Origin: Lelliottia amnigena
Lineage (GTDB): Bacteria; Pseudomonadota; Gammaproteobacteria; Enterobacterales; Enterobacteriaceae
Direction of reading: 5' to 3'
NCBI GenBank assembly: GCA_900635465.1
Contig: LR134135.1
Coordinates: 1,984,001-2,048,000, forward strand
DNA: 64,000 nt
Below the pieces are notes generated by a model that was not told the origin of the DNA, did no database searches, and worked only from the letters and a program-made list of their open reading frames with translations. Positions 27,188-35,484 of the stretch are shown here, one piece after another. The position numbers and the translations under genes are program-made. The number at the start of each line of letters is the position of its first letter. Position 1 is the first letter of the stretch.

Positions 27188-27686
27188 AAGACTTTCTCCA
27201 GTGATTTTATCTTCACGTTAGCATGATTAAAATGTACTTACAATTTCTTAAATAGTATTAATTTCAATAAGTTCAATAGAAAATATCCCTTTTACTCACT
27301 GAGGTTATGGACCTGTTTGAGCCTCCGATTCAGAGAGGGAGCAGTAAACTTCTGAGAGCAAAACAGTTGGCCAACTTACAGTATGGTAATAGCCCAGTAA
27401 TTGGAGATGATATTGATGTTAAAAAGGGGACCTGGGATGGTTAAATTCGCCCCTGATTCGTACAGAATGACCGCAGTGAAGAACTAAAATAAATCGCCAT
27501 TGAAATCGCCAGGACATCTTATTTCTATAAGATATTGAAAATAGGGAAAGTTGGGATGCGAATCACCGCGAAGCGCTTTAACCTGTCTATTGCATCCCAC
27601 GGTTGAACTCACCGCGCTTAGCAGACATGACTGAGATCCTGGCTGCCAACGTCATATAAAAGGCGATCGCCAGGGCCTCTGGCTTA
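27188..27686. other. Accessory DNA between ldhA and cat
   Basis: About 500 bases. It holds the ldhA promoter region, one possible 59-residue frame (27307-27486, listed separately) and otherwise no recognisable gene or repeat. Confidence 0.5.
27307..27486 (+). CDS. Possible 59-residue small protein
   Basis: The frame starts MDLFEPPIQRGSSKLL and ends DSYRMTAVKN. It has no signal peptide, membrane segment or cysteine and is moderately basic. GAGG lies only two bases before the ATG, so translation is doubtful, and it could be a piece of a longer lost gene. I do not recognise the family. Confidence 0.3.
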
Positions 27687-28364
27687 TCAACCGTTGATTT
27701 CCTCTGAATGGTGCAGCGAGCCATTACACATTTCCTGTAACTCATTGATCAGTCTTGCCACATGGAAACCATCGCACACGGAATGATGTACCAGAACAGC
27801 GAGAGGCAACAGTATTTTTCCATCTTGTGGGAAGTATTTCCCAAGAGTGAACATAGGAGAAAAAAAGTTCTTCATATTAGCAATATTAGTGTTAAAACTG
27901 GTAAAACTTACCCAAGGAATAGCCGATACAAAAAAGATATTTTCTCGAGACTCCTCCTTTGGCCAATAAGAAAGGTTATTACTGTAGCGTGCTACGTCTT
28001 CTGAATAAGCGTCCTGGAAGTGATCAATATTGCCATCATAGTGACTCCATAATGATGAAAAGGTCTCCGTTTCATTATGGAAAATTGTATAATTTGGATG
28101 AACTTCATCCCATATGACAAGCTCATTATTCTTTATAGCCATACGGAACTCCGCATGGCGGTTTACTACTTTGGCAAGGAGGAAAATAATAGTTGGGTAA
28201 AATTTCCAGCCAGCTTCCTTAATATTTTCTAGCAGCACGGTAATATCGAGCTGGACAGTTTGATTAAATGTACATTCAGCAAATGACTGAAATACCTCAA
28301 AATGCTCCTTCCTTGCCCAACGAGATAAGTCAACAGACGTATATTTTGGCGTTGTTGTATTCAT
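27687..28364 (-). CDS. Chloramphenicol O-acetyltransferase, type A (CatA-like)
   Basis: The 225-residue trimeric-type CAT acetylates chloramphenicol with acetyl-CoA. Key residues are present: catalytic His194 and Asp198 in HHSVCDGFH, the SFTSF serine at about residue 154-156, and the N-terminal [11 protein letters not shown]. By eye it is only about half identical to CatA1 from Tn9, so it is a divergent member. No transposase, integron or plasmid gene is adjacent. The DNA is AT-richer than the core genes. The start is preceded by AAAGGCTAAAAA. Confidence 0.92.
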
Positions 28365-29077
28365 TTTTTAGCCTTTGATTCGCAATCATATAAAGATGTT
28401 AGCTTAAATTTTTTCATGAATGAAGCATACAGTGACCAAACGTTTTTGGTGTAGCAGATTGTTCAATCTACGGGTTTTCCTGTTGAGAAAAAGTCATAGC
28501 CTATCCGTGCTCTACGCATAGCAGAAGGCAAATGCTTAGGATCTGCCCGCTTTGCGCCAAAAGAGGGTGATACCCCAGGGTGAGACAGGCCACTGAATAG
28601 TTCTGTTGCTCAGCCCGATTGTACCGGAACGGCCGACGACGAAGGCTTTACTATGAGCCAGTGAGTGGGGTGATTCAGAATCTCTGCTGTGCTACAGACC
28701 ACCTATTTTATCCCCATAAGGTGGATTAATTATTCAGCCGCCGGACAAAAGTTCGGTTCATGCAAAAAACATCCATTTCAAAACCACCACGCCCTGAGCC
28801 TGCACAAACCAATTAGTCTTAGCATTTATGTGGATTTATTTGCACCGACTAAACAAATAACGTGCTTTTTGTACATATTATGATGAGAAAAGTGCACCGC
28901 AAATACCAGTACAGACCATAAGTAATCAATGTTGAAGATGGTTTTGGTGTAATGGTTTGATTTTTAAGAAAAAAATTATAAATCCTCTTAATGCATTGTT
29001 ATTAGCCAAGCAGCATCTATAAATAACATAATAACTACATTATAATTCTTTAATATTCGAGAGATAGGCAGGTTAGA
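28365..29077. other. Gene-poor accessory stretch between cat and the PruR-like gene
   Basis: About 710 bases. I see only short frames without ribosome sites or similarity (for example a 64-codon one at 28689-28883). The last 150 bases are AT-rich and likely carry the promoter of the following operon. No inverted repeats of IS type seen. Confidence 0.5.
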
Positions 29078-29572
29078 ATGCGGTTAATTGTGATGTTGTT
29101 GAGCTTTGTGGTCTCCCTGCAGGTTTTGGCGGGTGAGCTTCCCAAACCTGTCGGGAAAGTGCTCTTAACACTCTCCGGTCATATTGAAAATACAAACGAA
29201 GAGGGTAAAGCCGTTTTCGATCTCGCCAGCCTTGAGAAACTGGGCATGGTAAGTTTTCAGACCGCCTCTCCCTGGTATAATGGGCGCACAACCTTTACGG
29301 GTATTCCACTGCAAAAGCTGATGGATTACGTCGGGGCGGAAGGTACTGTCGTTAAGGTCACTGCACTCAATGACTACACCACCGTTGTCCCTCTCAGTGA
29401 TTTCAAAAAATACAATGTCATCCTTGCGTTGAAAATCAATGGGGAATACATGCGTGTCCGCGACAAAGGTCCGCTATTCATCGTGTATCCCTATGACAGC
29501 AAACCTGAACTGAATAATCAGGTCTTTTATTCAAGGTCAGCCTGGCAGGTCAGCAAAATGAGCATTGAGTAG
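29078..29572 (+). CDS. Periplasmic molybdopterin-fold protein without cysteine, PruR-like pterin sensor candidate
   Basis: The 164-residue protein has a signal peptide (MRLIVMLLSFVVSLQVLA, then GELPKP). The mature part is a single oxidoreductase molybdopterin-binding (SUOX-like) domain, with the typical RVRDKGPLFIVYPYD and SRSAWQVSKM near the end. It contains no cysteine, so it cannot ligate molybdenum as YedY/MsrP or sulfite oxidase do. In Agrobacterium, PruR has this fold, binds reduced pterins in the periplasm and controls the c-di-GMP enzyme DcpA. The GGDEF-EAL gene follows at once here, which supports the same role. Ribosome site GATAGGCAGG. Confidence 0.78.
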   Translation: MRLIVMLLSFVVSLQVLAGELPKPVGKVLLTLSGHIENTNEEGKAVFDLASLEKLGMVSFQTASPWYNGRTTFTGIPLQKLMDYVGAEGTVVKVTALNDYTTVVPLSDFKKYNVILALKINGEYMRVRDKGPLFIVYPYDSKPELNNQVFYSRSAWQVSKMSIE

Positions 29573-29588
29573 GATTCATAAGAACAAT

Positions 29589-31562
29589 ATGAACAGAATC
29601 CTGGCTGGCATAATATTTTTCCTTTTTATATCCACCGGATATATCTCTTTTCTTGTGCATGAAAGGCAGCAAGAGTTACAGAAACTGACGCACTACGCCA
29701 GTTCGTGGTCTGCTGTACAGCTGGTCTCGGAGTATTACCGTTTCGAATCATGGCTTGGTCTTTACACTATCGATGAGACGATGACGCTCGATGATGTGCG
29801 CTTACACCTCGACATTATGCTCAGCCAGAGCGATTTAATGAAAGAAGGGGATTTGGGGCATTATATAGATAGCAATAAATCGCTTCATGACGTGGCGATA
29901 AAACTCGAAAACACACTCAATTATCTGGATGTTCATCTTGAGAAAATGAATCGCTCAGAGCTCCAGGCATATCTGAAAGAGATGTATGCGCTTGATGCAC
30001 CACTGAGCCGTCTTTCATCCGGCGCGTTAAACAAAGATGTTAACCTGATTAACAACGCCAACAGCAAAATTCAAACGTTGTACACTATTTATTCCGCGAC
30101 TTCTGTGCTGCTAATAATATTGAGTGCGATCCTGGGCGTGCTGATTTTTTATCAAAATAGAAATATTCTGAAGGCGCATCTTCAGGTTAAAAGCCTTGCT
30201 GAAGAGCTTCAGGAATCTAAAGAAAAACTGCAAATTCAGAATAAAAAACTGGAATATGACGTTTACCATGACCCTCTTACAAAGATGAGTAACCGACTGT
30301 TTTTCTGGGAGAATTTGAATAAAACCATCCAGATGGCAGAAAGCAATAACAGCGCTGTGACCGTGATGTTGTTTGATTTAGATAGATTCAAAGAGGTCAA
30401 TGATACCTATGGGCATGATGCCGGTGATATGTTATTGCTTCAGATAGCCCATCGCCTGAGTTCGATGAGTCTTCCTCCAGATACACTTTATCGCTTAGGT
30501 GGCGATGAGTTTGCGTTACTCACAACGGGTCTGACAGAAAGCCACGCTATTTCACTCGCCCAGAAAATATGTGATTGCATTAACCAGCCTTACACGATAC
30601 ATAGCACGATTGTAAACATAACCACCTGTGTGGGCATTGTTAATTCAGAAAAAGAACGCCGCTCCGACTATCTCTATAAATTTGCCGATCTGGCCCTTTA
30701 TGAAGCCAAAAGTGAGGGCGCAGGCAAGATTAAAGTCTTCCGCCAACGAATGTTAGACAAGCTGCAGGAAAGCAGAACCCTTGAGCACGACATGGCACTG
30801 GCAATAGTGAATAAAGAGTTCGTGGTTTATTATCAGGCGATTGTCGATTCGTACAGTTGGGAAATTTACAGCTATGAGGCCCTTATTCGTTGGATGCATC
30901 CGCTAAAGGGCCTTTTGTCGCCAGATAGCTTTATTCCTGTTGCTGAAAAAACAGGAATGATTAACGAGATGGGGAAATCGGTGCTGGAAATGGCCTGTCG
31001 GGAGGCGGCTTCCTGGGCCGTTCCGGTTAAAATTTCCGTCAATGTCTCTCCAGTGCAGCTCAGCAGCAAAGCCTTTGCCGGGGTTGTGCTTTCTATTCTG
31101 AAAGAGACTGGGCTTCCGGCCGACCGTCTGGAACTGGAAGTGACGGAATCCTCTCTCTTTATTGAGAGCACTACGCCGATGAATACCCTTAATAAGCTTA
31201 GAGCGCAGGGTGTGAAAATCTCCATCGACGATTTTGGTACGGGATACTCTTCTCTTTCCCGGCTGAGCCGACTTGCCTTCGATAAAATTAAAATAGACAA
31301 ATCCTTTGTAAATTCGATATCTACACAGGAAGACGCCCTTAATATCATCAAGCTTATTACCAGCATGGCGAAATCCCTCAGTATGAAGACTGTCGCAGAA
31401 GGGGTTGAGACACAGGAACAATTGGAAAGTCTTCAGGCACTGGGCTGCGATTTAGTACAAGGCTATCTGTTTAGCAAACCTCAGCCTTTTATCGCCGGGG
31501 AAATCAAAAATGGTTTACTCTCGAACGATGCTCCTGCTCTGTTAATTGCACCGCGAGGCTGA
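29589..31562 (+). CDS. Membrane-bound dual GGDEF-EAL c-di-GMP enzyme, DcpA-like
   Basis: The product is about 657 residues from the ATG at 29589 (a TTG at 29565 is possible but has no ribosome site). It has membrane helix 1 (residues about 3-20), a periplasmic domain to about 160, helix 2 (about 168-188), a coiled coil (EELQESKEKLQIQNKKLEY), a GGDEF domain with intact LGGDEFALL (about 304) and an EAL domain with YEALIRW (about 430), LEVTESS, DDFGTGYSSL and VAEGVET. Both synthesis and hydrolysis sites look active. No RxxD inhibitory site precedes GGDEF. It lies 16 bases after the PruR-like gene, whose product would contact the periplasmic domain. Confidence 0.88.
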   Translation: MNRILAGIIFFLFISTGYISFLVHERQQELQKLTHYASSWSAVQLVSEYYRFESWLGLYTIDETMTLDDVRLHLDIMLSQSDLMKEGDLGHYIDSNKSLHDVAIKLENTLNYLDVHLEKMNRSELQAYLKEMYALDAPLSRLSSGALNKDVNLINNANSKIQTLYTIYSATSVLLIILSAILGVLIFYQNRNILKAHLQVKSLAEELQESKEKLQIQNKKLEYDVYHDPLTKMSNRLFFWENLNKTIQMAESNNSAVTVMLFDLDRFKEVNDTYGHDAGDMLLLQIAHRLSSMSLPPDTLYRLGGDEFALLTTGLTESHAISLAQKICDCINQPYTIHSTIVNITTCVGIVNSEKERRSDYLYKFADLALYEAKSEGAGKIKVFRQRMLDKLQESRTLEHDMALAIVNKEFVVYYQAIVDSYSWEIYSYEALIRWMHPLKGLLSPDSFIPVAEKTGMINEMGKSVLEMACREAASWAVPVKISVNVSPVQLSSKAFAGVVLSILKETGLPADRLELEVTESSLFIESTTPMNTLNKLRAQGVKISIDDFGTGYSSLSRLSRLAFDKIKIDKSFVNSISTQEDALNIIKLITSMAKSLSMKTVAEGVETQEQLESLQALGCDLVQGYLFSKPQPFIAGEIKNGLLSNDAPALLIAPRG

Positions 31563-31936
31563 ATTCGGCAACGTTGGTTCGTCGCTGATAATGGACGCGT
31601 TTTTGTTCTCGATTCATATCCTCGGACTGCCTCAATTCGCTCTGACCCCTGATGCAGCTCATTACCCGCAGCGCGCGTAACGGCGCGCTGACGATCGCTG
31701 CTCTGAAGATGAGTTAGCCACCTGCACGGTAGATGAAACACGGCTGATTATCCCACCACTCTCGCACGTCACGTTAAACCACTGACACAGGTTGAAGCTG
31801 TGCATCGCGATCGCCTTCGCGGCCAGGTATTCTTCACGGGTTTGAACGTGTGTAAAACGTCCACCCAGAAAACCCTTGCGTCGGCTGATGCCCGGAAGTG
31901 TCGCCAAAACCCAAATGGGCTAACACAAATACCTTA
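31563..31936. other. Remnant-like stretch without an intact gene
   Basis: About 370 bases. The minus strand has an 81-codon frame (31662-31907) starting MATLPGISRRKGFLGGRF that looks like part of a phage or island protein, but no ribosome site or recognised family supports it. Low-confidence remnant. Confidence 0.35.
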
Positions 31937-32392
31937 TTACAGCATTGGCTTCACTAATGCATTTCTGTGAAGTCCTTCTTCTAAAACACGCTGATAAATA
32001 GCATGCGGAACAATGACAGGGATTTTGGTGTTCGGGTAGATTTGCATTAAAGCCAACGTCCGATGCCTTCCATCCATGATGGTGAAAGGTGTAGTCATTT
32101 CGGGATACTCAACAACGTCATTGGCTATGTATGTTTTCACTTTATGCCAGCGGGTCGGGTGTATGTTAAACGCTTCGTCGCCCATCGACTCAAGGATCTT
32201 CAGTCCATCCGCGAATAAAATACAGCCTCCCTCATTAGCGCACACTGCGGGAAGGGTGAACTTAATTTCATTGAATTTTGGATAGGAAAAACCTTCCTCA
32301 TCTTTTGGGATGCTTTCAAAGGCGTTAAAGCGATATTTGCTCATGACGGCGTTTATCATTTCCACGGGGAAACGTGCGAATAAATGCTCCAT
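31937..32392 (-). CDS. Hypothetical protein with a ParB/sulfiredoxin-like DGRHR motif
   Basis: The 151-residue soluble protein has no signal peptide. The C-terminal half contains FTIMDGRHRTLALMQIY followed by IPVIVP, the pattern of the ParB/Srx nucleotide-binding fold. The N-terminal half is not recognised. It is a single gene at the edge of the accessory block, close to the iterated GGGGCA motif. It could belong to a plasmid- or phage-type maintenance or modification system, but nothing nearby confirms that. Confidence 0.6.
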   Translation of the reverse strand: MEHLFARFPVEMINAVMSKYRFNAFESIPKDEEGFSYPKFNEIKFTLPAVCANEGGCILFADGLKILESMGDEAFNIHPTRWHKVKTYIANDVVEYPEMTTPFTIMDGRHRTLALMQIYPNTKIPVIVPHAIYQRVLEEGLHRNALVKPML

Positions 32393-32572
32393 AGCTCGAC
32401 CTCAATAAATTGAACATGGCTACAATCATTACATACGTGAACGAAGGTATGTAGCTCCCAAAAGTAGTGCTTGCGGGTGATTTCTGACAACCGGATCGCC
32501 GCGAATTTTCGTCGGGGTCGGGGTGTAAAACGATGAGCTGTTAAGCTCAACAGATCCCCTCTACGCGATAAA

Positions 32573-32624
32573 TTTTGGGGCAAACTCGGGGGCAGATAGG
32601 TCTGCAGGGGCATAAAATGGGGCA
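32573..32624. repeat. Iterated GGGGCA motif at the right edge of the accessory block
   Basis: Four copies of GGGGCA start at 32577, 32589, 32607 and 32619, a symmetrical spacing of 12-18-12. GTGTAAAACG lies upstream at 32523. The same two motifs occur at 56851-56926. The arrangement resembles arm-type sites next to tyrosine-integrase islands. The remaining bases up to ydbH (32625-32844) hold no gene. Confidence 0.6.
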
Positions 32625-32844
32625 GAAAAGATGCTGTCATTCTCCGCCAGTGGCGAGTAAGGAGATTATGTAATTGTATGAATATTATGTAACTTATTAA
32701 GAATGTGGATGATTAAAATTTTACTCCAGGGAGTTACAGCGTCTATCCTTACAAAAGCGTTGGCTACAATGGATTGGCTAAACATGACACAATACGGGGC
32801 AATGCAGGTTTATTTTTTTCGCAAAATCAGGATATTAACTGCCC

Positions 32845-35484
32845 ATGAAGGGTAAATACAAAGCTGCACTAGCGCTCCTGTTACTGATCATACTGTTGCC
32901 GCTGACGCTGCTGATGACGCTCGCCCAGTGGGTTCCTACGCTTGCCGGGATCTGGCTCCCCGTCGGAACGCGAATTGCGTTCGAGCAAAGCCCACGCCTT
33001 ACCCGTAACCACATTGTGATTCCCGATCTCCGCTATCTGGTCGACGATTGCGAAATCGCCCGCGTCGAGAACGCCACGCTTTCGCACCCCAGTCGCTGGA
33101 AACTTGAGGTTGGCGCGCTGGATCTCAATACGGCCTGTCTCAATAAATTGCCGCAAGCCGAGCAATCTCAGGCCGCGCCCAAAACGCTCGCCGAATGGCA
33201 ATCCATGCTGCCGTATACCTGGCTCACCATCGATCGTTTGACGTTGTTGCCATGGCAACAGTGGCAGGGAAAGCTCAACGTATCATTGACGCCATCAATG
33301 CAGGAAATCACATATCAGGGCGAACAGGTCAAAGTACGCGGCAAATTACGCGGTCAAAGCCTGACCGTCAGTGAGTTCGAACTTCACCTTCCTCAGGCAG
33401 AACAGCCCATCAAGCTGGCCGGTGAATTTACTCTTCCATTAATACTGGATGGGGCTCCCGTACAGGGCCACGCGCAGGCAACGTTTAACGTGCCGCACGT
33501 TCCGTCGCTGGTGGATGCCGATCTCGACTGGGAAAACAACCGTGGGCAGTTGGTGGTGATGGCGCGGGATAACCCCGATCCGCTGCTTGATTTACCCTGG
33601 CAGCTCACCGCAGAGCAGTTAACGATCAGTGATGGGCGCTGGCACTGGGATCTCTCCGGTTTACCGCTGAGCGGGCGCGTTGGCGTCAAGGTTGAAAACT
33701 GGCGGCAGGGTCTAGAATCCGCAACGATCAGCGGTCGACTGAACATCCTGACGCAGGGTGATGCCGGTAAAGGGAATGCGGTGCTGACCCTGGGGCCGGG
33801 TAAACTCAGCATGGATAATAGCGCCATGCCGCTCCAGTTGACGGGCGAGGCCAAACAAAACGATCTGATTCTGTATGCCATTCTTCCGGCCCGGTTCACG
33901 GGCAGCCTGGTTGACCCACAGCTGACGTTTGAACCGGGCGCTCTGCTGCGCTCGCGCGGTCGAATTATTGATTCGCTGAATATCGACGAAATCCGCTGGC
34001 CGTTGGCCGGGGTTAGGCTCTCGCAAAAAGGCGTCGATGGGCGTTTGCAGGCGATCCTCAAAGCGCATGAAAACGAGATGGGTGATTTTGTGCTGCATCT
34101 CGACGGACAGGCGCACGATTTTTTGGCGGACAAAGGGCTGTGGCGTTGGCGCTACTGGGGCGACGGACATTTCACGCCGATGAATGCGCGCTGGGATGTC
34201 GCCGGGAAAGGTGAATGGCGCGACAGTTTTATCGAGTTGACCGCGTTGTCGACCGGATTCGATAAGCTTGAATACGGCACCATGCTGGTGAGCAACCCCC
34301 GGCTGGTGCTGGAGCACCCGGTACGCTGGCAGCGTGATGAAACCGATCCGCACTTTAGCGGCGCGTTATCGCTGGATGCGCAGAAAACAACGTTTTCTGG
34401 CGGAAGCGTACTTCCGCCGTCGACCCTTAAATTTAGCGTCGACGGGCGTGATCCGACGTTTTTCCAGTTCAAAGGCGACTTGCACGCGGGCGAAATTGGC
34501 CCGGTCCAGGTGAACGGTCGTTGGGATGGTGAACGCCTGCGCGGTCAGGCGTGGTGGCCTAAACAATCGCTCACGGTGTTCCAGCCGTTGGTTCCACCCG
34601 ACTGGAAAATGAACCTGCGCGAGGGTGAGCTCTATGCGCAAGTGGCGTTTTCGGCGGCCGCAGGTCAGGGCTTTGAAGCGGGCGGGCACGGGGTAATGAA
34701 AAGCGGTAGCGTCTGGATGCCGGACAACCAGGTAAACGGTGTGGATTTTGTCCTGCCGTTCCGGTTTAGCGCAGGCACATGGTCTCTCGGAACACGCGGT
34801 CCCGTGACCTTACGCATCGCAGAAGTCATCAACCAGGTCACCGCCCGTAATATTACGGCCGATTTGCAGGGCGATTATCCGTGGAGCGAAGACAATCCGC
34901 TCCTGCTGACCAACGTCAGCACCGACGTACTGGGGGGAAAAATCACAATGCAGCAGTTGCGGATGCCCCAGCACGATCCGGCGCTGCTTCGGGTGCAGAA
35001 TATCTCTTCCAGTGAATTAATAAGCGCAGTCAATCCGAAACAATTCACAATGTCCGGCCCGGTCAGCGGGGCGCTGCCGTTCTGGCTGGAAAACGAAAAC
35101 TGGATAATCAAAGACGGCTGGTTAACCAATCCTGGCCCCATGACGTTGCGCATTGATAAAGACACGGCAGATGCCATCGTCAAAGACAATATGGCGGCGG
35201 GCGTGGCGATTAACTGGCTTCGTTATATGGAAATTTCTCGCTCGTGGACGAAAATCAATGTAGATAATTTAGGTGTCTTGACCATGCAGGCCGCAATCAG
35301 TGGTATCAGCCGTGTCGATGGCAAAAGCAATGCGGTGAATCTCAACTACACCCATGAAGAAAACATTTTCACCCTGTGGCGCAGCCTGCGCTACGGCGAT
35401 AATTTACAGGCATGGCTTGAGCAACATGCGGCGTTACCTGAAGCCCGCTGTCCGACAGGCAAGGAATGTGAGGAACAACGATGA
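32845..35484 (+). CDS. ydbH: YdbH, AsmA-like inner-membrane lipid-transfer protein
   Basis: The 879-residue protein has one N-terminal membrane anchor (residues about 5-30) and a very long beta-rich periplasmic part of the AsmA/TamB/YhdP group, thought to form a bridge moving phospholipids to the outer membrane; in E. coli ydbH is redundant with tamB and yhdP. The C-terminus (ENIFTLWRSLRYGDNLQAWL) matches E. coli. Its stop overlaps the ynbE start (ATGA), so ydbH-ynbE-ydbL form an operon. Confidence 0.95.
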   Translation: MKGKYKAALALLLLIILLPLTLLMTLAQWVPTLAGIWLPVGTRIAFEQSPRLTRNHIVIPDLRYLVDDCEIARVENATLSHPSRWKLEVGALDLNTACLNKLPQAEQSQAAPKTLAEWQSMLPYTWLTIDRLTLLPWQQWQGKLNVSLTPSMQEITYQGEQVKVRGKLRGQSLTVSEFELHLPQAEQPIKLAGEFTLPLILDGAPVQGHAQATFNVPHVPSLVDADLDWENNRGQLVVMARDNPDPLLDLPWQLTAEQLTISDGRWHWDLSGLPLSGRVGVKVENWRQGLESATISGRLNILTQGDAGKGNAVLTLGPGKLSMDNSAMPLQLTGEAKQNDLILYAILPARFTGSLVDPQLTFEPGALLRSRGRIIDSLNIDEIRWPLAGVRLSQKGVDGRLQAILKAHENEMGDFVLHLDGQAHDFLADKGLWRWRYWGDGHFTPMNARWDVAGKGEWRDSFIELTALSTGFDKLEYGTMLVSNPRLVLEHPVRWQRDETDPHFSGALSLDAQKTTFSGGSVLPPSTLKFSVDGRDPTFFQFKGDLHAGEIGPVQVNGRWDGERLRGQAWWPKQSLTVFQPLVPPDWKMNLREGELYAQVAFSAAAGQGFEAGGHGVMKSGSVWMPDNQVNGVDFVLPFRFSAGTWSLGTRGPVTLRIAEVINQVTARNITADLQGDYPWSEDNPLLLTNVSTDVLGGKITMQQLRMPQHDPALLRVQNISSSELISAVNPKQFTMSGPVSGALPFWLENENWIIKDGWLTNPGPMTLRIDKDTADAIVKDNMAAGVAINWLRYMEISRSWTKINVDNLGVLTMQAAISGISRVDGKSNAVNLNYTHEENIFTLWRSLRYGDNLQAWLEQHAALPEARCPTGKECEEQR

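What the first reader, a model, noticed from the sequence alone, without database searches (positions are those of the whole stretch)
29078..31562. Candidate pterin-responsive c-di-GMP module (PruR/DcpA-like) in accessory DNA
Seen: a secreted molybdopterin-fold protein without any cysteine, followed 16 bases later by a two-helix membrane protein with a periplasmic domain and intact GGDEF and EAL sites. Known: in Agrobacterium tumefaciens, PruR binds reduced pterins and sets the balance of the dual enzyme DcpA; the Mo ligand in true sulfite-oxidase-fold enzymes is a cysteine. Inferred: this pair senses a periplasmic pterin and switches surface attachment. It lies between cat and an integrase-like repeat, so it may be horizontally spread.
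Basis: partly seen in the sequence, partly recalled or inferred. Interest (0 to 1): 0.75.

Follow-up and report, generated by a model that had tools for sequence, protein, structure and literature searches.

The report
Pterin-sensing c-di-GMP gene pair
This looks like a two-gene switch of a recently described kind, in which a secreted protein senses a vitamin-like pterin and steers a membrane enzyme that makes or destroys the signal governing surface attachment; it is an ordinary member of that kind, but it turns up at many chromosome sites, often beside a chloramphenicol acetyltransferase gene.

Summary
Window 29078-29572 encodes a 164-aa, probably secreted, cysteine-free sulfite-oxidase-fold protein. 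Sixteen bp later, 29589-31562 encodes a 657-aa protein with two hydrophobic helices, a predicted helical periplasmic domain and intact GGDEF and EAL motifs. Every sequence feature of the published PruR-DcpA pterin/c-di-GMP family that I could test is met: strong match to a solved 'Pterin Binding Protein' (7rkb, E=9.9e-64), Asn/Tyr/Trp pocket residues in register with A. tumefaciens PruR, the WX7E motif, gene order, and FolM in the genome. It is a new member of a known kind. Pterin binding and PruR-DcpA contact were not testable.

Across 61 genus genomes pair and cat are both present in 46, both absent in 13. Physical linkage could explain this. Related PruR-kinase modules lie beside transfer genes on 8 of 9 plasmid loci of that type opened. 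The 'integrase-like repeat' is a decayed SRAP-like gene remnant.

The parts
29078..29572 (+). pruR-like gene: predicted secreted pterin-binding protein, SUOX fold, no cysteine; N98, Y100, W156 match A. tumefaciens N102, Y104, W160
   Evidence: A. tumefaciens residue numbers from PMC13259868
29589..31562 (+). dcpA-like gene: two hydrophobic helices, predicted helical periplasmic domain with WX7E (W40..E48), GGDEF and EAL domains with intact motifs
28746..29077 (+). upstream region of pruR; DNA similarity to the five clade mates starts between 28746 and 28957, so the promoter probably lies here (no promoter-like match above the shuffled expectation)
27687..28364 (-). cat: chloramphenicol acetyltransferase family gene, divergent from the pair, 713 bp upstream; frequent neighbour of the pair in Enterobacteriaceae
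27188..32844 (.). accessory DNA (43.6% G+C; window 52.3%) between ldhA and ydbH, which are 207 bp apart in E. coli K-12
31805..31876 (-). decayed 5' remnant of an SRAP (YedK-like) gene; similar, open copy of the gene at the second place (G000:C1:2296826-2296907)

Best explanation
A PruR-DcpA pair. PruR is exported and binds a reduced pterin in the periplasm, most likely tetrahydromonapterin made by FolM. Loaded PruR contacts the helical periplasmic domain of DcpA, and the signal crosses the membrane to set the balance between the diguanylate cyclase (GGDEF) and phosphodiesterase (EAL) halves; by analogy with A. tumefaciens the loaded state favours phosphodiesterase, lowers c-di-GMP and disfavours attachment. 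Shown here: sequence, fold family, motifs, gene order, presence of FolM, many chromosomal contexts. Inferred by homology: export, pterin binding, contact, direction. The pair behaves as an accessory unit that lies, with cat, in the ldhA-ydbH interval of this genome.
For: PDB sequence matches 7rkb E=9.9e-64 and 7kos/7kou E=1.1e-57 (named Pterin Binding Protein), 7kp2 E=3.9e-26 (Putative Pterin Binding Protein), 7kom E=8.2e-23 (Oxidored_molyb domain-containing protein); the review calls 7KOS A. tumefaciens PruR and 7KP2 V. cholerae PruR. N98/Y100/W156 with Y-W spacing 56, as for Y104/W160; N-x-Y and the Trp in 74 of 74 loci. WX7E in the window and in 70 of 74 loci; W40 and E48 invariant in an alignment of the window and 24 of the 35 loci, including Paracoccus at 30% identity. 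DcpA 54% identical to the K. pneumoniae and 42% to the Phyllobacterium protein encoded next to a PruR relative. All-helical model of residues 1-210, mean pLDDT 85. FolM 79% identical to E. coli FolM in the same genome. The genome's other PF00174 protein is a separate gene with an RCVEAW cysteine motif and a membrane-protein neighbour (MsrP/MsrQ names recalled).
Against: No binding, interaction or c-di-GMP data for these proteins; no complex could be predicted with the tools. The periplasmic model has no confident fold match (best E=0.079) and pTM 0.61. Four of 74 loci lack WX7E; L042, from the window's own DcpA clade, has Ala at the Glu position with motifs otherwise present, and was among the 11 loci not in the alignment. 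The 74 loci were chosen by closeness to the window PruR; the more distant enterobacterial relatives L028-L032 are followed by histidine kinases instead. The review says the in vivo pterin is unknown and that V. cholerae has such pairs without a PruA homologue.
Confidence: 0.85

Rival explanations
1. The first protein is a small molybdenum oxidoreductase of the sulfite-oxidase/MsrP kind, merely adjacent to an unrelated c-di-GMP enzyme.
For: PF00174 'Oxidored_molyb' is the only Pfam match, and many database entries name homologues 'molybdopterin-dependent oxidoreductase'.
Against: No cysteine in the window protein; in the 19 of 74 relatives that have cysteines these lie at or before residue 17 in window numbering, i.e. 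in the signal-like stretch or an over-extended start. Same partner in 74 of 74 loci. Best solved relatives are named pterin-binding proteins. A separate enzyme-type gene with a Cys motif exists.
Confidence: 0.04
2. PruR and DcpA interact, but the ligand is not tetrahydromonapterin: another pterin (exogenous, folate-derived or modified), or no ligand-dependent switching in this host.
For: The review says the in vivo ligand is unknown and that neopterin bound in alternative orientations. Only homology supports the ligand here.
Against: The window has Asn at the 102-equivalent position, not the Asp that the review reports in its groups C and D, and has the Tyr and Trp; FolM is present.
Confidence: 0.3
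3. The direction is reversed or absent: DcpA here works mainly as a diguanylate cyclase, or the pair is silent accessory DNA.
For: GGDEF is intact, and the inhibitory RxxD site (motif recalled) reads LPPD, so product inhibition is not expected. Promoter-like matches upstream are no more than shuffles give (3 against 2.2).
Against: The EAL motifs looked for are all present; both reading frames are open.
Confidence: 0.2
4. The cat neighbourhood is only hitch-hiking: cat and the pair travel and are lost together because ancestors had them side by side.
For: The two single absences (G345, G330) fall in or near lineages where the genes are not adjacent, and several joint absences lie near lineages where they are; one deletion would remove both. 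The cat tree is unresolved (14 of 47 inner branches starred). On the DcpA tree cat-less lineages lie between the arrangement clades.
Against: 22 of the 45 tree genomes with both genes keep both although not within 3.5 kb on one contig (5 of the 22 on different contigs, 2 about 11 kb apart). A dependent two-trait model is favoured (LRT 33.2), while three control comparisons with two other genes gave 3.15, 3.61 and 4.09. G352, with neither, is drawn next to G144, where the two are 54 kb apart. None of this excludes linkage.
Confidence: 0.85

Closest known systems
PruR-DcpA of Agrobacterium tumefaciens (PruR structure 7KOS, per PMC13259868)
   Same: Gene order, small Cys-free SUOX-fold protein with a signal-like N-terminus, pocket N/Y/W, WX7E, GGDEF plus EAL output
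   Different: Host (an Enterobacter-group bacterium), site next to cat, FolM (which the review groups apart from PruA); no functional data. The C58 DcpA sequence itself was not compared here
Klebsiella pneumoniae pair (L139; over the residues printed its PruR differs by eye from chain 7rkb by one residue, so 7rkb is inferred to be the Klebsiella protein)
   Same: 63% (PruR) and 54% (DcpA) identity, same order and motifs
   Different: Different site (next to shiA), no cat in the 12.5-kb stretch fetched
PruR-DTB (pterin-binding protein plus sensor kinase)
   Same: PruR half
   Different: Kinase output instead of GGDEF-EAL; the window is not of this type
Sulfite oxidase / MsrP (YedY) enzymes
   Same: Fold family PF00174
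   Different: They carry a Mo-ligand cysteine; the window protein has none

Membership tests
PruR-DcpA | Secreted ~170-aa SUOX-fold protein | tested here: met
   164 aa, N-terminal hydrophobic stretch (export itself not tested), PF00174, 7rkb/7kos matches
PruR-DcpA | No Mo-ligand cysteine; pterin-pocket Trp, Tyr and Asn | tested here: met
   0 Cys; N98, Y100, W156 spaced as N102, Y104, W160
PruR-DcpA | pruR directly upstream of dcpA, transcribed together | tested here: met
   16-bp gap; same order in 74 of 74 loci; co-transcription itself not tested
PruR-DcpA | DcpA-type periplasmic domain with WX7E | tested here: met
   W40-SAVQLVS-E48; invariant in the 25-row alignment
PruR-DcpA | Intact GGDEF and EAL catalytic motifs | tested here: met
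   activity not tested
PruR-DcpA | Pteridine reductase (PruA/FolM type) available | tested here: met
   FolM relative at 79% identity; not present with every such pair (V. cholerae)
PruR-DcpA | PruR binds reduced pterin | not testable with these tools
   needs protein
PruR-DcpA | PruR contacts the DcpA periplasmic domain | not testable with these tools
   no complex prediction offered
PruR-DTB | Histidine kinase output | tested here: not met
   GGDEF and EAL domains, no kinase domain among the Pfam matches
MsrP/sulfite oxidase enzyme | Mo-ligand cysteine | tested here: not met
   no cysteine

The most novel reading that the evidence does not exclude
The cat gene is a functional partner of the pterin switch, not just a neighbour. 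Its enzyme, which acetylates a primary hydroxyl, could act on the trihydroxypropyl side chain of a monapterin-type ligand (chemistry recalled, untested) or otherwise tune the signal. In 59 of 61 genomes of the genus set pair and cat are both present or both absent; on the ydbH tree the joint absence needs nine changes (six forced by starred branches), and in half of the genomes with both the two are not neighbours.
Probability: 0.1. Interest if true: 0.7.

Novelty: new member of a known kind. Interest (0 to 1): 0.42.

Why it matters
It places a pterin-responsive c-di-GMP switch in the Enterobacter/Lelliottia/Citrobacter group, where FolM is at hand (tested in the window genome only) and genetics should be tractable, so the open questions of the true ligand and of pteridine-reductase dependence become directly testable. 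It shows the pair in many chromosomal contexts and gives a testable co-occurrence with cat. The side observation that PruR-kinase modules lie beside plasmid transfer genes suggests that pterin sensing may reach beyond biofilm control.

Tried and rejected
Mo-enzyme reading: rejected for lack of cysteine and because a separate enzyme-type gene exists. DTB reading: rejected, no kinase domain. 'Integrase-like repeat': tblastn of reading frames from L137 against window 31501-32900 gave the SRAP-like remnant, and only weak hits (E=0.11 and worse) for the integrase-fragment frame; Pfam gave no match for the 81-aa and 151-aa ORFs there, PHROGs nothing better than E=0.25. A cat tree to date the cat-pair association: unresolved. 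Foldseek of the periplasmic model: no hit at E<=0.001; one of five models was poor (pLDDT 63). E. coli: no DNA match to the pair in 20,395 records. Literature on a cat link or on plasmid PruR-kinase modules: searches listed nothing on it; most subscription papers are not held. The primary PruR-DcpA papers were not among the listings and I did not see them; all I say of the family comes from the review.

Full report
Observation. The two ORFs lie where stated. The first encodes 164 residues without cysteine, has a hydrophobic N-terminus and matches PF00174 at E=8.9e-8. The second, from the ATG at 29589, encodes 657 residues with two hydrophobic helices and GGDEF and EAL domains whose motifs are present. 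The gap is 16 bp.

What it is. A search of PDB sequences gave 7rkb (E=9.9e-64), 7kos/7kou (1.1e-57), 7kp2 (3.9e-26) and 7kom (8.2e-23); the first three are named pterin-binding protein or putative pterin-binding protein, 7kom an Oxidored_molyb domain protein. The review PMC13259868 (I saw the abstract, sections 5, 7 and 8, and passages found by search) identifies 7KOS as A. tumefaciens PruR and 7KP2 as V. cholerae PruR. It describes the family: a secreted SUOX-fold protein with Trp and without the Mo-ligand Cys, residues N102, Y104 and W160, an operon with a DcpA-type protein whose periplasmic domain bears WX7E, and more than 5500 unique sequences in Proteobacteria. The window protein has N98, Y100 and W156 with the same 56-residue Y-W spacing, and its partner has W40-X7-E48. 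Among the listed database hits that carry a name, most are called molybdopterin-dependent oxidoreductase or hypothetical, and three Citrobacter entries are already called putative pterin-binding protein (120 of 3335 hits listed). The genome encodes a FolM relative at 79% identity to the E. coli enzyme, which the review says reduces dihydromonapterin to tetrahydromonapterin.

Relatives. I compared 74 enterobacterial loci: 34 named loci (L033-L066), 39 stretches, and the window. Several are the same genome twice, leaving 60 distinct pairs. They were found by similarity to the window PruR, so they are the close part of the family. A dcpA relative follows pruR in 74 of 74; N-x-Y and the Trp are present in 74, GGDEF in 73, EAL in 73, DDFGTG in 72 and WX7E in 70. 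Oddities: L066 has broken frames and L116 a short dcpA, and L042 has Ala at the Glu position of WX7E. More distant enterobacterial PruR relatives, L028-L032, are followed by histidine kinases. The alignment behind the structure model held 25 sequences, the window and 24 of the 35 loci; L042 was not in it. The model of residues 1-210 is all helix, mean pLDDT 85, pTM 0.61. The nearest solved folds were weak: NarQ sensor fragments at E=0.08-0.12 and the periplasmic sensor domain 4k0d at E=0.18, TM 0.67-0.69 on the target.

Distribution and mobility. PruR matches occur in 39 of 295 genomes sampled from the family and in 47 of 61 genomes of the window's genus set (one of them, G295, with stops). 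That set includes contigs whose lengths equal those of named Lelliottia, Leclercia, Silvania, Huaxiibacter and Enterobacter records, so the host is an Enterobacter-group bacterium (inference). The pair has no DNA match in 20,395 E. coli records. Grouping loci by two or more shared flanking gene families gives 31 contexts for 60 distinct pairs; flanks were mostly 6-8 kb and gene finding was crude, so this may overcount. In the window the unit lies between ldhA and ydbH, which are 207 bp apart in E. coli K-12. DNA similarity to five clade mates stops at the dcpA end (31527-31564) and near the cat stop (27699-27719). The nearest sampled genome by ydbH, G334 (96%), carries a PruR only 85% identical, about 0.4 Mb from its ydbH and in another arrangement. 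G342, with ydbH at 85%, has PruR at 88%, and L037, on a contig of the same length, has the DcpA nearest to the window's, at 90%. The window copy therefore does not follow the ydbH signal, which fits horizontal acquisition.

cat. A cat gene is present in the fetched stretch of 31 of 60 distinct pairs: 7 upstream divergent (the window type), 17 downstream convergent (one of them, L129, 9 kb away) and 7 downstream on the same strand (one, L116, 1.9 kb away); 29 have none there. On the DcpA tree the window belongs to a clade of six upstream-divergent loci (100/100); the seventh, L057, lies among the downstream-convergent ones. In the genus set cat is found in 47 of 61 genomes and the pair in 47 of 61, both in 46, neither in 13; two of the 13, G335 and G346, are only 79% and 86% complete. 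The two are within 3.5 kb in 23. On a ydbH tree of 58 of the 61 genomes (quick method) the 'neither' label needs 9 changes, 6 forced by starred branches. A dependent two-trait model beats an independent one (LRT 33.2, p=1e-6). Three control comparisons with two other genes gave LRT 3.15, 3.61 and 4.09; the controls are a methyltransferase found in 15 of 61 at E<=1e-60 and a dehydrogenase that I scored as absent in 4 of 61, where only distant matches were listed, so the second has little power. This does not separate function from physical linkage: joint deletion of neighbours gives the same pattern, and the two single absences fall in or near lineages where the genes are apart. One of these, G330, has cat in two pieces. 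In the wider family sample cat matched 34 of 295 genomes, some of them distant relatives.

Off-window. tblastn at E<=1e-5 finds PruR homologues in 638 of 72,556 plasmid records, 398 of them typed conjugative; these may include other PF00174 proteins. I chose and opened eleven enterobacterial plasmid loci (not a random draw). Two, L094 and L139, carry a DcpA-type partner. The other nine carry a histidine kinase as the next gene on the strand: Pfam domains in eight, by annotation for L091; in L165 there is a gap of 1.3 kb between them. Transfer genes lie in the fetched stretch in 8 of the 9; the ninth, pSC138 (L160), is bounded by IS26 there. A regulator gene and a ~300-aa protein precede PruR in 8 of 9 (in L163 the latter is cut by an IS3 element; L164 is the exception). 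Pfam shows BetR and receiver domains in the two regulators scanned (L091, L162). L093 and L163 give identical Pfam scores for their kinases and, with L165, share a replicon cluster or IncFII typing, so the nine are not independent. On the F-like plasmid L164 the pair lies between traM and traA. The three kinases looked at lack an exact WX7E (L091-L093). My literature searches on this listed nothing relevant, which is weak evidence of absence.

Verdict. A sound find and a correct family call, but an ordinary member of a published system. The many contexts and the cat association are not in the review sections I read; the cat association may be mere linkage.

Noticed in passing
L091, L092, L093, L160-L165 (plasmid records): PruR-like gene plus histidine kinase lies beside conjugation genes in 8 of 9 kinase-type plasmid loci opened, usually behind a regulator (BetR plus receiver domain in the two scanned) and a ~300-aa protein with a weak heptosyltransferase-like match (E=0.031, below cut-off); suggests pterin-linked control of transfer genes (inference).
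   Followed up: partly
L164:4063-8085: On an F-like plasmid the PruR-kinase pair lies between traM and traA, where F-like plasmids usually carry the traJ regulator (that position is recalled).
   Followed up: partly
L028-L032: Chromosomal PruR-kinase pairs in other Enterobacteriaceae; where the kinase N-terminus is seen it keeps a Trp but has Lys where DcpA has the WX7E Glu.
   Followed up: partly
G000:C1:3928524-3929006 (L001): The genome's other PF00174 protein is an enzyme-type (MsrP-like) gene with a Cys motif and a membrane-protein gene downstream.
   Followed up: partly
L094:5833-10450: An E. hormaechei 362-kb plasmid carries the pair behind a separate diguanylate cyclase gene and without cat in the fetched stretch; in Enterobacter L060/L119 a GGDEF-like gene of one family (c3) also lies just upstream.
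   Followed up: no
L062: Record titled Chryseobacterium carries an enterobacterial locus (PruR 87% identical, same context as Citrobacter L055); probably a mixed or mislabelled assembly.
   Followed up: no
window 31937-32392 (-): 151-aa ORF with no Pfam or PHROGs match at E<=1; it looks ParB/nuclease-like to the eye only.
   Followed up: partly
L066: Kluyvera genomosp. 3 record has pruR and dcpA in broken frames; intact copies exist in its relatives.
   Followed up: no
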